Shown here in pieces: positions 1,906 through 25,607 of a stretch of 38,811 nt of DNA. Below the pieces are notes generated by a model, which saw only the letters and a program-made list of their open reading frames with translations, made no database searches and was not told where the DNA came from. This stretch comes from Balneolaceae bacterium (GTDB lineage Bacteria; Bacteroidota; Rhodothermia; Balneolales; Balneolaceae), in contig JAFIFA010000017.1 of NCBI GenBank assembly GCA_020832225.1, positions 1 to 38,811 on the forward strand, written 5' to 3'. How positions within the stretch are numbered: the stretch's first letter is position 1; each line of letters begins with the position of its first letter. A program made the position numbers and the translations under genes.

Positions 1906-2925
1906 TTACCCCGAATAGCACTTTACAACATCCAGAACCTTATCCAGCTCCTTGTCTCCAACCTGAAAATGGAAGGTAGCACGGATCGTCTTCGGGCCGA
2001 ACGGGATCATCCCTACTCCTTTCTCAGCAAAGACCTCCAGCACATCTGCGGCAGTCCCGTTCCTTACATCGAAAATGACAATGTTGGACTCCACGCTATC
2101 GGGATCGATCTCAAATGCAGGATTTTCGAACACTACTTCAGCCAGTTTTGCCGCACGCACCTGATCGTTTTTCATCAGTGGATAGTGATGCTGAATAGCG
2201 TAGTCGGCCGCAGCCGCCAGTAGGCCTATCTGCCGCATTCCCCCACCCCACATTTTCCGAAGCCGGCGCGCCTTGCGGACCTGATCTTCCGATGCAAGCA
2301 TCATAGACCCAACTGGCGCTCCCAGTCCTTTGCTGAAGCAGACCGAAATGGTATCGGCAACGCTGCCAAAAAACTCCGGTTCAATATCGGTTGCCGCCAT
2401 TGCGTTCCAGATACGGGCACCATCCAGATGGAGTGCCAGTTCATGTTCGGATGCCAGATTGCTGAGCTCAATCAGTTCTTCCCGCGAGTAGCAGGCTCCC
2501 CCACCCTTATTGGTCGTGTTCTCAACGGCGATCACACTGGTATGGGGATCCCAGTCGTTGCGCGTGCGAATCGCCGGCTCGGCGAGCCTCCTTGAAAGTT
2601 TACCTCGTACCCCCTTGAGCGGACGCAGCTGTACCGAAGAGAGATGTGAGGCAGCGCCCGACTCGTAGTTAAAGATATGCCCCAACTCATCAATGATCAC
2701 CTCATCACCGGGCTGTGTGAGCACCGCCAGGCAGAGCTGATTGCTCATGGTTCCACTCGGCACAAAGAGACCAGCCTCCATTCCGAACATCTCAGCCACC
2801 TTTTGCTCAAACCGGTTCACCGTCGGATCCTCCCGGAACACATCATCCCCCACTTCAGCAGAGGTCATCGCCTCCAGCATTCCGGATGTCGGTCTTGTTA
2901 CGGTATCGCTGCGAAGGTCTATCAT
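1906..2925 (-). CDS. ltaE: Low-specificity L-threonine aldolase
   Basis: PLP enzyme of fold type I that splits L-threonine or allo-threonine to glycine and acetaldehyde in the cytoplasm. The 339-residue length is normal. Visible landmarks are the N-terminal family signature [12 protein letters not shown], the glycine/serine phosphate-binding turn PSGTMSNQ (about 56-63), the His that stacks on the cofactor (LGH, about 83), the DGAR motif (168-171) and the Schiff-base lysine in CFSKGLGAP (Lys199). All key residues are present, so the gene should be functional. It lies on the same strand as the dehydrogenase at 3035-3895 but is separated by a 109-base repeat-bearing spacer, so co-transcription is uncertain. 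Confidence 0.93.
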
Positions 2926-2953
2926 TTTATTGGAGTGAAAAGTGAAAAGGGAA

Positions 2954-2981
2954 GACGTGAGACGTGAGACGTGAGACGAGG
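2954..2981. repeat. Heptanucleotide array a: three perfect GACGTGA units plus one degenerate
   Basis: Units start at 2954, 2961 and 2968, followed by a decayed fourth at 2975. The TGAG core reads on the plus strand. It lies 28 bases upstream of the threonine aldolase start and faces array b in inverted orientation. Confidence 0.85.
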
Positions 2982-3018
2982 AATTTGGTTCATAACTTGA
3001 TTAGAACCCAATTCCCAA
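2981..3018. repeat. Imperfect inverted repeat between heptad arrays a and b
   Basis: GAATTTGGTTC (about 2980-2990) and GAACCCAATTC (about 3003-3013) are near-complements differing at one position around a 12-base loop. With arrays a and b outside them, this makes a larger fold-back of about 90 bases. Confidence 0.6.
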
Positions 3019-3019
3019 T

Positions 3020-3043
3020 CTCAAGACTCAAGACTCAAGACTT
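3020..3043. repeat. Heptanucleotide array b: three perfect CTCAAGA units
   Basis: Units start at 3020, 3027 and 3034. On the minus strand they read TCTTGAG. The stop codon of the dehydrogenase gene (complement of 3035-3037, TGA) falls inside the last unit, so the array begins exactly where the coding sequence ends. Confidence 0.85.
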
Positions 3044-3895
3044 ATATTCAAAAAATCCAACTCCTGTCTTGTCGCCGAGTTTTCCGGCATCAACCATCTT
3101 CACCAGAAGCGGACATGGTCGGTACTTTGGATCCTTGAACCCATCATAAAGCACATTCAGTATATCGAGGCAGACATCCAGACCGATAAAGTCGGCCAGG
3201 CGAAGTGGTCCCATCGGGTGGGCCATTCCAAGTTTCATCACCTCATCAACGTGTTTTGGCTCTGCAACGCCTTCATGCACACAGAAGATCGCCTCGTTGA
3301 TCATCGGCATCAGCACGCGGTTGGAGACAAACCCCGGAAAGTCGTTGGCCGGAACCGGTACTTTGCCCAGCTTCTCCGATAGTTTCATGACAGCATTTGT
3401 AACACTTTCATCGGTATCAAGCCCGTTGATCACCTCAACAAGCTTCATTACCGGAACAGGATTGAAGAAGTGCATTCCGATAAATTTCCCCGGCCTGCCG
3501 GTTACCGCCGCCAGTTTTGTAATCGATATAGAGGATGTATTGCTCGCAAGTATGGCGTGATCGGGCGCGTGCTTATCAACTTCCTCAAAAATCTTCTTTT
3601 TGAGCTCGAAATTCTCCGGTACTGCTTCAACAACCAAATCACAATCCAATACAGCACCGGGTATATTCAGATGCGGCTGAATGCGGTCCATGGCTGCAGC
3701 CTTATCAGCTTCAGTGATCTTCTCCTTTTTAACCATTCGGCTCAGGTTCTTATCGATGGTATTCATCGCCCGATCCGCAAACTCCTGCTTGGTCTCCACA
3801 AGTTTCACATCAAAACCGTTTTGTGCAAATACGTGCACAATTCCGTTACCCATTGTACCGCCACCGATGACGACCACTTTCTTTATTTCACTCAT
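3035..3895 (-). CDS. 3-hydroxyacyl-CoA (3-hydroxybutyryl-CoA) dehydrogenase
   Basis: NAD(P)-dependent oxidation of L-3-hydroxyacyl-CoA to 3-ketoacyl-CoA, or the reverse, in fatty-acid or short-chain acyl-CoA metabolism. The 286-residue length matches the single-function Hbd/PaaH type. The Rossmann fold opens with VVVIGGGTMGNGI (8-19). The catalytic His is His142 in MHFFNPVPVM, with its Glu partner at 154 (KLVE). The NDFPGFVSNR segment (184-193) supplies the conserved Asn192, and the C-terminal helical dimerisation domain is complete. Chain-length specificity cannot be told from sequence. The stop codon lies in a heptanucleotide repeat array. Confidence 0.93.
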   Translation of the reverse strand: MSEIKKVVVIGGGTMGNGIVHVFAQNGFDVKLVETKQEFADRAMNTIDKNLSRMVKKEKITEADKAAAMDRIQPHLNIPGAVLDCDLVVEAVPENFELKKKIFEEVDKHAPDHAILASNTSSISITKLAAVTGRPGKFIGMHFFNPVPVMKLVEVINGLDTDESVTNAVMKLSEKLGKVPVPANDFPGFVSNRVLMPMINEAIFCVHEGVAEPKHVDEVMKLGMAHPMGPLRLADFIGLDVCLDILNVLYDGFKDPKYRPCPLLVKMVDAGKLGDKTGVGFFEYKS

Positions 3896-4012
3896 TGTCT
3901 GGCTCCATTACGTTCATTATTTCAATCTTCATTTCATTCGGTTCAGAGAGTATGTATTTTGATTGGAATTTTCAATCTTTACAGCCACATATTTCGACTT
4001 TTAACCCCGCTG

Positions 4013-6457
4013 ATGAGTTCACTTCTAAGAATCGGACTATTCCTGCTTATACTGCTTACCGGATTAGCCGCTATCGGAATATACTGGACATTCTACAAAC
4101 CTCTGCCCAACTACAGCGGCACACTTGAGTTGGCTGAGCTGCAGAGTCCTGTTGATGTTCACTGGGATTCATATGGCGTACCCTATATCCACGCTCAGAG
4201 CGAGAATGATCTCTACTTTGCCGCCGGTTATGTTCATGCCCAAGAGCGAATCTGGCAGATGACCCTCTCCCAGCTATCGGCTGAAGGGCGCTTTTCGGAG
4301 TTTCTTGGAGAAGAACTGGTGGAACTCGATAAATTTCAGCGCACCCTTGGCTTCTGGGAGACCGCCAAAAGAATTGAGGAGGAGAGCTCAGCTGAGGTTC
4401 TGAATATCCTGCAGCGTTATGCTGATGGTGTGAACCGCTATGTGGAAGATAACCGGAAGAATCTACCCATTGAGTTCTCCCTAACCGATGTTAAACCGAT
4501 TGAGTGGACGCCTACACACACAATCGCACTGACCCGTTTGATGGCGTGGGACCAGAATATGCACTGGTGGAGCGAACTCTCTATCGCATACCTTGCCGAC
4601 ATTATTGAACCACAACGTCTTCAGGAGCTCATACCGGTCTACAACGACCGATACCCCACTCTGCTAAACGACAGTGAAAGCCGTGGTTTTGCATCATCCG
4701 CTCTGCCGCTTTTGGAGACCGACCTGAAGAGAAGGTCGATTCTCTCCCTGGAAGGGACACAGTTTGGGAGCAACGCATGGGCGTTAAGTGGTGAGAAAAC
4801 CGAGTCCGGCAGCCCGATACTAGCCGGTGATCCCCATATGGGCCTCACCATTCCCGGCTTCTGGTTTGAAGTTCACTACTCACTGCCCGGCCATCGGGTA
4901 ACCGGTGCAACCATTCCGGGGCTCCCCTTTGTTATTCTGGGCAAGAACAACAATGTGGCCTGGACCATCACCAATATGATGGCAGATGTGACCGACTTTT
5001 TTGTTGAAACCCCATCACCGGAAAACCCCAATCGCTACATCACGGACACAACATCCACTCCAGAAACTACGGAAGCTTTCGAGTTCCGGGATGAGATCAT
5101 TCAGGTGAAAGGCGGAGATGACCGGCTCTTTAGAATCAGATCCACCATTAACGGCCCCGTTATCAGCGATTTCCTAAATCACGACACATTTCCTGATGAC
5201 AAGGTGATCGCCCTCTCCTGGACCGGCAACCAGGTAAGTCATGAAACACTGGCGGGCTATCGGATGAACCGTGCCCGCAACATGGAGGAGTTTGAGGAAG
5301 CAATCTCCGGGTTTCGATCTCCCGCAATGAACTTTACCTATGCCGACCGATTCAACAATATCGCAATTTTCAGTGCCGCATCGATTCCGGTGCGTTCCGG
5401 TCAGCCACTGCTATTCCGTGATGGAAGCAACCCCGCCTCAGCCTGGCAGGGCACCCTTCGCCAGGATCAGCTCCCAAGGGTCGTAAATCCGGATAACAGT
5501 TTCGTGGCCCATGCCAATAATAAAATTCATACAGACGACTATCCGCACTATATCGGCTCATTCTGGGCTCCGCCATCACGAATCATGAGGATTACTCAAG
5601 TGCTTGAGGAGAGCGAAAATGTAACAACGGATGATGTTCGAACACTTCAGTTTGATCATTTTTCGGAGCATGCAAGAGAGATCACCGAAATGATTCTCCC
5701 GATGCTTCGCTCCGACTCCCCGTACGACTTCTCAACCGTTCTCCCCTATCTGGAGAATTGGGATTATCTCTACAACCCCTCCTCTACAGCCGCCACAATC
5801 TTCGATCTCTTTTTTCTGAATCTCTCCAGAAATGTTCTTGCAACTGAGATTGGTGAAGAAGCCTATCAATCCCTTGCATCACTTAGCTATGTACCGGTGC
5901 AGATTATCAGCCGCATGCTGGACCAGAACAGCCCCTACTTCAACAGAACCGAGTCACCGTTAAATGACGACCGTGCAATGGTGGTGCAGGAATCGATGCA
6001 GGAGACGGTTGAGCAACTCGGGGAGATGTTTGGCGATGAACCGATCAACTGGCGATGGGAAAATGTAAACACAATTACGCTTCGTCCACCCCTGCTTGGA
6101 GAAGCAGCAGCTGCACCGGAAGCTCCGGCTGTACTCAGAACCATTGTAAATAACCTCTTTAGCCGGGGGCCCTATCCCGTTCACGGTCATGCCCTTTCAG
6201 TAAACAAAGCTGAATATGGCTGGGATCGGCCATTTGAAGTTACGCTGGGCCCTTCAATTCGCCGAATTATTGATTTTTCATCACCGGGCAGGGCGTTGTC
6301 GATACTTCCAACCGGTCAGTCTGGAAATCCGATCAGCACCCATTACGGAGATCAGACCGATATGTGGCTCGACGGGCGGTACCGATTCATCTATCAGGAC
6401 AGCACCTTTTTCCAGCAGGCAAGTTACAGAACGATGCGGATGCTGCCCTCCGACTGA
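4013..6457 (+). CDS. Penicillin acylase family (S45) amidohydrolase, membrane-anchored precursor
   Basis: N-terminal nucleophile hydrolase made as one precursor that self-cleaves into alpha and beta chains. The 814-residue form starting at 4013 opens with one hydrophobic anchor (SSLLRIGLFLLILLTGLAAIGIYW), placing the enzyme in the periplasm. The alpha part has the family phrase VHWDSYGVPYIHA. The autocatalytic site is FGSNAWALSG, with Ser253 as the new N-terminal nucleophile. GKNNNVAWTITN carries the expected Asn for the oxyanion hole, and the C-terminal GQSGNP segment is typical. The frame is open upstream to 3470, but that stretch is antisense to the dehydrogenase gene and lacks family residues. 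The natural substrate is unknown: acyl-homoserine lactones, beta-lactams or other N-acyl compounds are possible. The next gene follows 107 bases downstream. Confidence 0.92.
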   Translation: MSSLLRIGLFLLILLTGLAAIGIYWTFYKPLPNYSGTLELAELQSPVDVHWDSYGVPYIHAQSENDLYFAAGYVHAQERIWQMTLSQLSAEGRFSEFLGEELVELDKFQRTLGFWETAKRIEEESSAEVLNILQRYADGVNRYVEDNRKNLPIEFSLTDVKPIEWTPTHTIALTRLMAWDQNMHWWSELSIAYLADIIEPQRLQELIPVYNDRYPTLLNDSESRGFASSALPLLETDLKRRSILSLEGTQFGSNAWALSGEKTESGSPILAGDPHMGLTIPGFWFEVHYSLPGHRVTGATIPGLPFVILGKNNNVAWTITNMMADVTDFFVETPSPENPNRYITDTTSTPETTEAFEFRDEIIQVKGGDDRLFRIRSTINGPVISDFLNHDTFPDDKVIALSWTGNQVSHETLAGYRMNRARNMEEFEEAISGFRSPAMNFTYADRFNNIAIFSAASIPVRSGQPLLFRDGSNPASAWQGTLRQDQLPRVVNPDNSFVAHANNKIHTDDYPHYIGSFWAPPSRIMRITQVLEESENVTTDDVRTLQFDHFSEHAREITEMILPMLRSDSPYDFSTVLPYLENWDYLYNPSSTAATIFDLFFLNLSRNVLATEIGEEAYQSLASLSYVPVQIISRMLDQNSPYFNRTESPLNDDRAMVVQESMQETVEQLGEMFGDEPINWRWENVNTITLRPPLLGEAAAAPEAPAVLRTIVNNLFSRGPYPVHGHALSVNKAEYGWDRPFEVTLGPSIRRIIDFSSPGRALSILPTGQSGNPISTHYGDQTDMWLDGRYRFIYQDSTFFQQASYRTMRMLPSD

Positions 6458-20615: not shown

Positions 20616-20687
20616 AGCTTCTCGATTCATAGATTTATCCCGCAACTTAAGTGAAGCATGCCATATTTCGCTTCGAATCACGTCTGT

Positions 20688-20729
20688 CTCACGACTCATG
20701 ACTCACGACTCACTACTCAACCCTACTCA
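20688..20729. repeat. Heptanucleotide array c, running into the 3' end of a coding sequence
   Basis: Five phased units start at 20688 (CTCACGA, CTCATGA, CTCACGA, CTCACTA, CTCAACC); a further CTCA follows at 20726. On the minus strand these read TGAGNNN. The stop codon of the 260-residue gene is at 20713-20715 (complement TAG), and its last codons (MSRVE) are themselves repeat sequence. Confidence 0.85.
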
Positions 20730-22568: not shown

Positions 22569-22596
22569 CTGAGCCTTGAGCCTTGTACCTTGCACC
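22569..22596. repeat. Heptanucleotide array d at the stop codon of the SWIM-like gene
   Basis: Four phased units: CTGAGCC, TTGAGCC, TTGTACC, TTGCACC (starts 22569, 22576, 22583, 22590). The stop codon of the 569-residue gene occupies 22596-22598, so the array abuts it. Upstream is GCTTGAAGGTTTT (from 22547), also present beside array f. Confidence 0.82.
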
Positions 22597-24410: not shown

Positions 24411-24905
24411 ATGTCCTTACCCGTATCCCTGCAGGAAGTTATCGATGAAATGGGCCAGCAAAATGAGTTGATCACGGCGTTCATCAACCGGAAAACCGGT
24501 GAACTGAGGATCCTCACCGAAGACGATTACTACGCTTTGCGGCACCTGGATGATGGCGAGCCGATTGAAGACCTCCCGCCCTGGCAGCAGGAGACTATAC
24601 CTATACTTCGCGAAACGGACGAGTCGGACGATTTTATCCCGCTCCCCTCCAAGTTCGAGATTCACGAATACCAAATTATGGAAGATTTTATACGGTCTCT
24701 GGATGACGGGGCGATAAAAGATGATTTGTTTAACGCCATTCGCGGACGCGGTGCATTCCGGTATTTTAAAGACAAGGTATTTGATTATGGCATCCGAAAT
24801 GATTGGTTCAGCTTTAAAAACCAGGTGATGAAGAAAATTGCCGCTGACTTTCTTGATTCGGAAGGGATTGCGTACAAAGATGATTTAAGAGAGCAAAAGA
24901 AATGA
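24411..24905 (+). CDS. UPF0158 family protein
   Basis: Cytoplasmic protein of 164 residues belonging to a family without an assigned function. Recognisable parts are an N-terminal segment (residues about 20-45, TAFINRKTGELRILTEDD) and the central signature FIPLPSKFEIHEYQIMEDFI (about 75-94). This is followed by the conserved IRGRGAFRYFKDKVFDYGIRNDWFSFKNQ (about 110-138), which is the hallmark of the family. The protein is acidic, with no signal peptide or membrane helix. It ends in a TGA followed after seven bases by heptad array e, and the DUF4926/DUF6883 pair converges on it. Confidence 0.85.
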   Translation: MSLPVSLQEVIDEMGQQNELITAFINRKTGELRILTEDDYYALRHLDDGEPIEDLPPWQQETIPILRETDESDDFIPLPSKFEIHEYQIMEDFIRSLDDGAIKDDLFNAIRGRGAFRYFKDKVFDYGIRNDWFSFKNQVMKKIAADFLDSEGIAYKDDLREQKK

Positions 24906-24912
24906 GATGAAT

Positions 24913-24933
24913 CTTGAGTCCTGAGTCTTGAGA
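24913..24933. repeat. Heptanucleotide array e just after the UPF0158 stop
   Basis: Units CTTGAGT, CCTGAGT, CTTGAGA (starts 24913, 24920, 24927), flanked on both sides by ATGAGAT-like half units. It begins 8 bases after the TGA stop (24903-24905). Confidence 0.8.
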
Positions 24934-24950
24934 TGAGATTAAGAGATCAT

Positions 24951-25193
24951 TTATGCAGATTCAATTTTTCGAACATTAAGCATATCGTTCTCATTGAGAT
25001 GCTCAATTTCAGACTCCTTAACTGTTAAAACGGTAATTGTATCACCAACTGCATTGAATACTTCCAGGGTATATCCAAACTCTTCCTTGACCGGATCGTG
25101 ACGGTCTACTACCGTTGCCAAATCACCTTTCCGAAGGTGTTTTTCCTTAAAATCTCTTAGCAATACAACTTCTGAGTAAAGTTCAAACTTCAT
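24951..25193 (-). CDS. DUF4926 domain protein
   Basis: The 80-residue protein has the small beta-barrel-like DUF4926 pattern: FELYSEVVLLRDF ... HLRKGDLATVVDRHD ... GYTLEVFNAVGDTITVLTVKESEIEHL. No signal peptide or membrane helix. It starts 4 bases after the stop of the DUF6883 gene, so the two are almost certainly one operon. I recall DUF4926 and DUF6883 genes lying next to each other in other bacteria, notably cyanobacteria, and the size and layout are those of a toxin-antitoxin-like pair, but no activity is known to me. The gene is more A+T-rich than its surroundings, consistent with transfer. Confidence 0.8.
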   Translation of the reverse strand: MKFELYSEVVLLRDFKEKHLRKGDLATVVDRHDPVKEEFGYTLEVFNAVGDTITVLTVKESEIEHLNENDMLNVRKIESA

Positions 25194-25197
25194 GTTT

Positions 25198-25494
25198 TTA
25201 TGATTTAGCCGGATACATAGTTATGAACCTGTAATTTTCAAATTTGTAGTCATTCATCCAAATTGACTTTACAGATAATGATTTACCATTGGGTCCAATT
25301 AAGACTCCCTTAGACTCAAATAATTCCCCAAACTGTGTAATTTCAATTAATTCTGCATTAGTAGGCAATAATTGTATCCTGATATCCCTTTTAAGGATCT
25401 GCCAATTCTCTTTAGAGTATCCCGCCAAACCCAAGCCATTTGGATTTATCATTTCGCGGTCTGTACGAGAGCAGATAATGTTCAATCTTTTCAT
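25198..25494 (-). CDS. DUF6883 domain protein
   Basis: 98 residues from the ATG at 25494 (an in-frame TTG lies two codons upstream). The order of elements matches DUF6883: a helix GYSKENWQILKRDIRIQLL, then strands with GVLIGPNGKSLSVKSIWMND and FENYRFITMYP at the C-terminus. That corresponds to the family's R/K-S/T-x-W-I and RLVT-x-YP blocks. The family occurs alone and, as I recall, as a terminal domain in some polymorphic toxins; enzymatic activity is not established. The first half is short here and lacks the usual HP-GKHKA-type helix, so it may be a divergent or trimmed member. First gene of a two-gene operon with DUF4926. Visibly A+T-rich. Confidence 0.7.
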   Translation of the reverse strand: MKRLNIICSRTDREMINPNGLGLAGYSKENWQILKRDIRIQLLPTNAELIEITQFGELFESKGVLIGPNGKSLSVKSIWMNDYKFENYRFITMYPAKS

Positions 25495-25499
25495 CCTCA

Positions 25500-25523
25500 A
25501 TTATACAAGATCGAGAAATTCTC
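25500..25523 (-). promoter_or_regulatory. Possible promoter with overlapping palindrome for the DUF6883/DUF4926 operon
   Basis: On the minus strand a TATAAT hexamer (25500-25505) lies 5 bases before the ATG at 25494, which would imply a leaderless or nearly leaderless transcript. Immediately upstream is the 11-base palindrome GAGAA-A-TTCTC (25513-25523). No good -35 is visible. Autoregulation through the palindrome is speculation. Confidence 0.3.
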
Positions 25524-25607
25524 ATAGGAAGTAATCAATTGTTATATCTTTTTTGAATGATAATATTAGTCTTATGCATTGAGTCCCGTCCCTGTCCCAA
25601 ACGCTTC

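What the first reader, a model, noticed from the sequence alone, without database searches (positions are those of the whole stretch)
24951..25523. Compact A+T-rich DUF6883/DUF4926 operon, a candidate two-gene accessory system
Two small genes separated by 4 bases, both of families without known function, lie in A+T-rich sequence bounded by repeat arrays e and f. The TATAAT next to the start has a GAGAAATTCTC palindrome upstream. From memory, these two families are neighbours in other bacteria, and DUF6883 also occurs at the end of some toxins. The arrangement fits a toxin-antitoxin-like or immunity-like pair; there is no direct evidence for activity.
Basis: partly seen in the sequence, partly recalled or inferred. 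Interest (0 to 1): 0.65.

Follow-up and report, generated by a model that had tools for sequence, protein, structure and literature searches.

The report
Decayed toxin gene beside intact antitoxin
The two small genes belong to a widespread but apparently undescribed bacterial gene pair that looks like an RNA-cutting toxin followed by its antidote; in this genome the toxin gene reads as broken by a frame shift while the antidote gene is intact.

Summary
The two genes are real: minus strand, DUF6883 (25494-25198), 4 bp, DUF4926 (25193-24951). Its missing N-terminus (ATG ~25526-25524, IIEDEKIEHYLLSYRPRNDKSKWLG) lies one frame off, so the 'TATAAT' and the GAGAAATTCTC palindrome are inside the broken coding sequence and are not a promoter.

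The conserved-neighbour prediction is strongly confirmed. DUF4926 lies directly downstream of DUF6883 at 80/80 GTDB loci from about 12 phyla, at 23/25 places in the window's phylum, and at 94/146 listed cyanobacterial places plus all 16 of 16 re-examined exceptions.

AlphaFold gives DUF6883 a BECR ribonuclease fold (pLDDT 96). The best solved match is the CDI tRNase CdiA-CT Kp342 (Z 11.3), and the reported Lys-Tyr-Thr triad is conserved. DUF4926 is SH3-like. DUF6883 also forms the C-terminus of phage minor capsid and prophage-borne toxin-like proteins, again followed by DUF4926. DUF6883 is broken beside an intact DUF4926 far more often than the reverse (19 vs 2).

Best reading: a BECR RNase toxin with its antitoxin/immunity protein; the window holds a decayed toxin and a retained antitoxin. 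Activity and interaction are untested; the joint model gave no confident interface.

The parts
25198..25500 (-).
   Evidence: Pfam PF21814 44.6 bits; 41.1 bits to own model, profile 37-110
25430..25526 (-). 5' third of the same gene in another frame (reads MRISRSCIIEDEKIEHYLLSYRPRNDKSKWLG...), with the conserved K, Y and DKS motif; runs into a stop soon after the frame break near 25425-25440
   Evidence: Sequence; 15.7 bits, profile 7-31, against shuffles at most 7.0; aligned with 16 subfamily members
24951..25193 (-). DUF4926 gene, 80 aa, intact; SH3-like presumed antitoxin/immunity protein
   Evidence: Pfam PF16277 49.6 bits, profile 1-56; SH3-like fold of the family's model
25499..25523 (-).
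   Evidence: Codons ATG AGA ATT TCT CGA TCT TGT ATA ATT GAG GAT GAA; palindrome not above chance

Best explanation
DUF6883-DUF4926 is a two-gene toxin-antitoxin (toxin-immunity) module. DUF6883 is a BECR-fold, metal-independent RNase toxin, most like the CDI tRNase CdiA-CT Kp342, with a Lys-Tyr-Ser/Thr triad. DUF4926 is a small SH3-like protein that neutralises it, presumably by binding. The module occurs as free operons and as the C-terminal tip plus next gene of phage capsid proteins and prophage-borne toxin-like proteins. In the window the toxin gene has been inactivated by a frame shift (or reads so in the assembly) and the antitoxin gene survives intact. Shown: the families, adjacency, fold prediction, residue conservation, frame break and biased decay. 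Inferred: RNase activity, tRNA as target, neutralisation by DUF4926, and that the frame break is biological rather than a sequencing error.
For: Adjacency: 23/25 places in 345 genomes of the phylum; 80/80 GTDB loci, ORF gap typically 11-18 bp; cyanobacteria 94/146 listed, and 16/16 re-examined exceptions had a divergent DUF4926; plasmids of Actinomycetota, Cyanobacteriota, Pseudomonadota. Fold: pLDDT 96.2, helices then 4-stranded meander; 6cp9 Z 11.3, rmsd 2.3, 100 residues; 6cp8/6vek Z 9.0-9.5; RelE-type toxins Z 4-6.6. Active site: K15, Y19, H25 61/61, R103 58/61, S/T106 60/61, equivalent to K157, Y160, H170, R252, T255 of Kp342; in the window's subfamily K, Y, W, T 16/16. Toxin contexts: MuF minor capsid C-terminus plus DUF4926-like gene; 382-aa prophage protein plus DUF4926; cassette array. 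Biased decay: 19 vs 2, p 0.002-0.011; three 'orphan' DUF4926 keep the last codons of a deleted DUF6883. Frame break.
Against: No experiment on either family was found. The read-through pair model has pTM 0.59 and no confident mutual placement. The window's subfamily lacks the H25 of the main group and usually R103, so its chemistry may differ. One locus (G139) has DUF6883 intact and no DUF4926 found; Rhizobium L060 likewise. Decay counts are not independent and the p values are modest. The fold assignment rests on a prediction of a relative, not of the window's own broken protein.
Confidence: 0.82

Rival explanations
1. The frame break in the window is a sequencing or assembly error, and the genome carries a working toxin-antitoxin pair.
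For: Draft genome of 231 contigs; a single-base event; both halves keep the family's conserved residues.
Against: No long homopolymer at the site; breaks of DUF6883 with intact DUF4926 occur at 18 other surveyed loci, at different positions, so real decay is common; the same-genus copy in G266 also carries a stop.
Confidence: 0.2
2. The pair is a cellular function (for example RNA processing with an SH3-like RNA-binding partner), not a conflict system.
For: Very stable gene order over about 12 phyla; DUF4926 often remains when DUF6883 is lost.
Against: Patchy: DUF6883 in 21 of 345 and 63 of 244 genomes, several copies per genome and tandem copies (L106), on plasmids, and as tips of phage capsid and prophage-borne proteins.
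Confidence: 0.1
3. DUF4926 is the harmful partner and DUF6883 the antidote.
For: Both proteins are small and in one operon; gene order alone does not decide.
Against: DUF4926 survives without an intact DUF6883 in many genomes, the reverse is rare; DUF6883 has the nuclease fold and forms the C-terminal tip of phage capsid and prophage-borne toxin-like proteins.
Confidence: 0.03
4. Programmed frameshifting makes the full DUF6883 protein from the two frames.
For: Both frames remain open and conserved up to the break.
Against: Relatives of the same subfamily read in one frame, so there is no conserved shift site; breaks elsewhere are at other positions.
Confidence: 0.03

Closest known systems
CdiA-CT Kp342 / CdiI (PDB 6CP9) and CdiA-CT EC3006 (6CP8), BECR tRNases of contact-dependent inhibition systems
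   Same: Fold (Z 11.3 and 9.0), Lys-Tyr-Thr triad plus His and Arg in the main DUF6883 group; partner gene for protection
   Different: No detectable sequence similarity; DUF6883 is mostly a free 110-aa gene, not a CdiA tip; the partner is a different small protein family; the window's subfamily lacks the His
RelE/HigB-type type II toxin-antitoxin pairs
   Same: Small free BECR-fold toxin (Z 4-6.6) in a two-gene operon with a small partner
   Different: No sequence relationship detected; partner is SH3-like rather than a DNA-binding antitoxin; toxin gene comes first (usual in HigBA, unlike RelBE)
Phage-BECR (PBECR) domains fused to MuF (PMC5512222) and BECR toxins of polymorphic toxin systems (PMC3482391)
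   Same: BECR-fold domain at the C-terminus of MuF minor capsid proteins; standalone and fused forms
   Different: DUF6883 is a separate Pfam family and is paired with DUF4926; no description of it was found in the held library

Membership tests
Pfam DUF6883 (PF21814) | match above the gathering score | tested here: met
   44.6 bits against 27, positions 37-110 only; 5' part recovered in another frame
Pfam DUF4926 (PF16277) | match above the gathering score | tested here: met
   49.6 bits against 29.1, positions 1-56 of 57
BECR-fold nucleases (Kp342/EC3006 type) | N-terminal helical part followed by a four-stranded meander | tested here: met
   AF2 model of a family member, pLDDT 96.2; 6cp9 Z 11.3
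BECR-fold nucleases (Kp342/EC3006 type) | Lys-Tyr-Thr triad | tested here: met
   K15/Y19 61/61, S/T106 60/61; 16/16 in the window's subfamily; in the window K and Y lie in the out-of-frame part
BECR-fold nucleases (Kp342/EC3006 type) | key His and Arg | tested here: inconclusive
   Main group H25 61/61, R103 58/61; the window's subfamily has no H25 and R103 in 4/16
BECR-fold nucleases (Kp342/EC3006 type) | tRNase activity | not testable with these tools
   needs an assay
Type II toxin-antitoxin / toxin-immunity pair | conserved two-gene unit on one strand | tested here: met
   80/80 GTDB loci, 23/25 in the phylum
Type II toxin-antitoxin / toxin-immunity pair | toxin toxic alone and neutralised by partner through binding | not testable with these tools
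   joint model without a confident interface, pTM 0.59
Polymorphic toxin / phage-delivered effector | domain at C-terminus of a delivery protein with partner gene next | tested here: met
   met for relatives (L056, L146, L150); the window's copy is free-standing, so this speaks for the family, not for the window's copy

The most novel reading that the evidence does not exclude
DUF6883-DUF4926 is an undescribed, phylum-spanning toxin-antitoxin family: a tRNA-cutting BECR RNase neutralised by an SH3-like protein, with one and the same module serving as chromosomal and plasmid toxin-antitoxin pair, as prophage-borne toxin tip and as a warhead on phage minor capsid proteins.
Probability: 0.65. Interest if true: 0.65.

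Novelty: new member of a known kind. Interest (0 to 1): 0.5.

Why it matters
Two domains of unknown function that sit together in about a dozen phyla, and in a quarter of sampled cyanobacterial genomes, get a concrete and easily tested function: RNase toxin and antitoxin. It would add a widespread family to toxin-antitoxin catalogues (no PADLOC model matched the window's pair) and show the same module as a free pair and as a tip on phage capsid proteins. The window itself is an example of such a pair in decay, with the antitoxin outliving the toxin.

Tried and rejected
Promoter reading of TATAAT and palindrome: rejected, both are inside the broken gene. Sequence search of PDB with single proteins or the profile: no usable hit. 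PADLOC, NCBIfam, PHROGs: nothing above noise. GTDB scan with the window protein: none; first alignment too diverse for patterns. Phage records: no match; viral contigs with the Anoxybacillus tip: none. Apparent cyanobacterial DUF6883 without DUF4926: re-examined, 16/16 have a divergent DUF4926 that Pfam's threshold or the truncated list had hidden. Synteny of the flanking genes in the genus: not conserved, so no empty site to compare. Joint structure by reading the stop codons through in 16 in-frame pairs: both domains confident, placement not.

Full report
What is there. On the minus strand the window has a DUF6883 ORF (25494-25198 from its ATG; 25500 from a TTG), 4 bp, and a DUF4926 ORF (25193-24951). 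Both Pfam matches are above the curated cut-off. The stretch has the lowest GC of the window (0.366). On its 3' side lies a short heptamer array (TGAGTCT type, 24908-24934); no comparable array was found on the other side.

The toxin gene is frameshifted. Pfam matches only positions 37-110 of DUF6883. The missing part is encoded one frame off, from ATG at 25526-25524: MRISRSCIIEDEKIEHYLLSYRPRNDKSKWLG, then a stop a few codons on. Scored alone against a family model built without the window, this piece has 15.7 bits at positions 7-31. The best of 2000 shuffles has 7.0 and the next best segment of the whole window 3.3. It carries the conserved Lys, Tyr and the DKS motif of its subfamily. The palindrome class is at chance level and no sigma-70-like pair is found. 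Whether the break is biological or an assembly error cannot be settled without reads.

The pair is real and very widespread. In 345 genomes of the window's phylum, 25 DUF6883 places were found, 23 of them with DUF4926 directly downstream on the same strand. In GTDB species genomes, 80 of 80 loci found with the DUF6883 motif have DUF4926 next; record titles name about 12 phyla, including Cyanobacteriota, Acidobacteriota, Pseudomonadota, Chloroflexota, Bipolaricaulota, Bacteroidota, Verrucomicrobiota and Planctomycetota. ORF gaps cluster at 11-18 bp. In 244 cyanobacterial genomes 63 have DUF6883. Of 146 listed places 94 have a listed DUF4926, and all of the 66 strongest do. Sixteen of the 52 apparent exceptions were fetched and every one has a divergent DUF4926 directly downstream. 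Most of these exceptions belong to the subfamily of the window's pair (NDKSKFL in DUF6883; KGD.AT..D and LEVFNA.G in DUF4926). Plasmids of Rubrobacter, Gloeothece and Nitrosococcus carry the pair too.

Fold and active site. AlphaFold2 on 61 DUF6883 sequences gives pLDDT 96.2 and pTM 0.87: three helices, then a four-stranded meander, which is the published definition of the BECR fold (PMC3482391). The best solved structures are CdiA-CT Kp342 (6cp9, Z 11.3, rmsd 2.3 over 100 residues) and CdiA-CT EC3006 (Z 9.0-9.5), then RelE-type toxins at Z 4-6.6 (Foldseek E 3.3e-4). The two CDI toxins are tRNA(Ile) RNases for which a Lys-Tyr-Thr triad plus His and Arg are reported (PMC9086364). DUF6883 has K15, Y19 and H25 in 61/61, R103 in 58/61 and S/T106 in 60/61. 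The alignment ends (9 to 151, 110 to 259) place K15 at K157 and R103/S106 at R252/T255; this mapping is inferred from the ranges, since coordinates were not at hand. The window's subfamily keeps K, Y, W and T in 16/16, lacks H25 and has R103 in 4/16. DUF4926 is modelled as an SH3-like barrel.

Toxin contexts. In a Bacillota plasmid prophage DUF6883 is the C-terminal domain of a MuF-type minor capsid protein (PF04233 plus PF21814), followed by a 56-aa gene related to DUF4926 (via L146). A viral contig (L146) shows a capsid-cluster protein ending in DUF6883 followed by a DUF4926 match at 1.4e-9. Two phage capsid proteins in BFVD match at TM 0.86-0.88. In a P2-like prophage stretch (L150) and in Rahnella (L057) a protein of about 380 aa (in Rahnella only its end is in one frame) ends in DUF6883 and is followed by DUF4926. 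In Subdoligranulum the pair stands in an array of cassettes with repeated joints.

Biased decay. Counting only stops and frame splits, DUF6883 is broken beside an unbroken DUF4926 at 19 places (5 in GTDB, 3 in the phylum including the window, 11 in cyanobacteria). The reverse was seen twice (G585 C254; G139 has no DUF4926). Against gene lengths p is 0.002-0.011; the loci are not independent and some sets may overlap. Three 'orphan' DUF4926 genes (G179, G195, G087) keep the last codons of a deleted DUF6883. This is what a toxin with an antidote predicts.

Reading. Best explanation: BECR RNase toxin plus SH3-like antitoxin/immunity protein, decayed on the toxin side in this genome. Adjacency, fold prediction, residues and decay are shown. 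RNase activity, tRNA as substrate, neutralisation and binding are inferred. The read-through joint model (16 pairs, pTM 0.59) neither supports nor refutes an interface. No paper in the held open-access library names DUF6883 and only one names DUF4926 in passing; subscription papers are not covered. The kind (BECR toxin with partner, also as MuF fusion) is known (PMC3482391, PMC5512222); the family appears new.

Noticed in passing
window 2953-3044, 20686-20719, 22570-22582, 24908-24934: Heptamer repeats of the TGAGTCT type in several intergenic places: 14 pattern matches in the window against 1.4 expected. They recall the short tandem heptanucleotide repeats known from cyanobacteria (from memory).
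   Followed up: partly
window 24411-24905: A UPF0158 gene convergent with DUF4926; relatives in only 8 of 21 genomes of the genus (window's own included) and not in the same gene order.
   Followed up: partly
L106 (Contendobacter) 2078-4342: Three tandem DUF6883(-DUF4926) units, the first a remnant.
   Followed up: no
L062 2741-3351 (Methylobacterium): Reversed order: a DUF4926 gene upstream and overlapping DUF6883.
   Followed up: no
L060 2959-3339 (Rhizobium etli): DUF6883 overlapping the end of a restriction-type ATPase gene, with a DUF262 gene nearby and no free DUF4926; a weak DUF4926-like stretch lies in the C-terminus of the restriction protein (E 2e-3).
   Followed up: no
L046 786-2146 (G239): Unpaired DUF4926 between a DUF433-like/PIN-like pair and a HEPN-like gene, that is, inside what looks like a toxin-antitoxin island (assigned by eye from the translations).
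   Followed up: no
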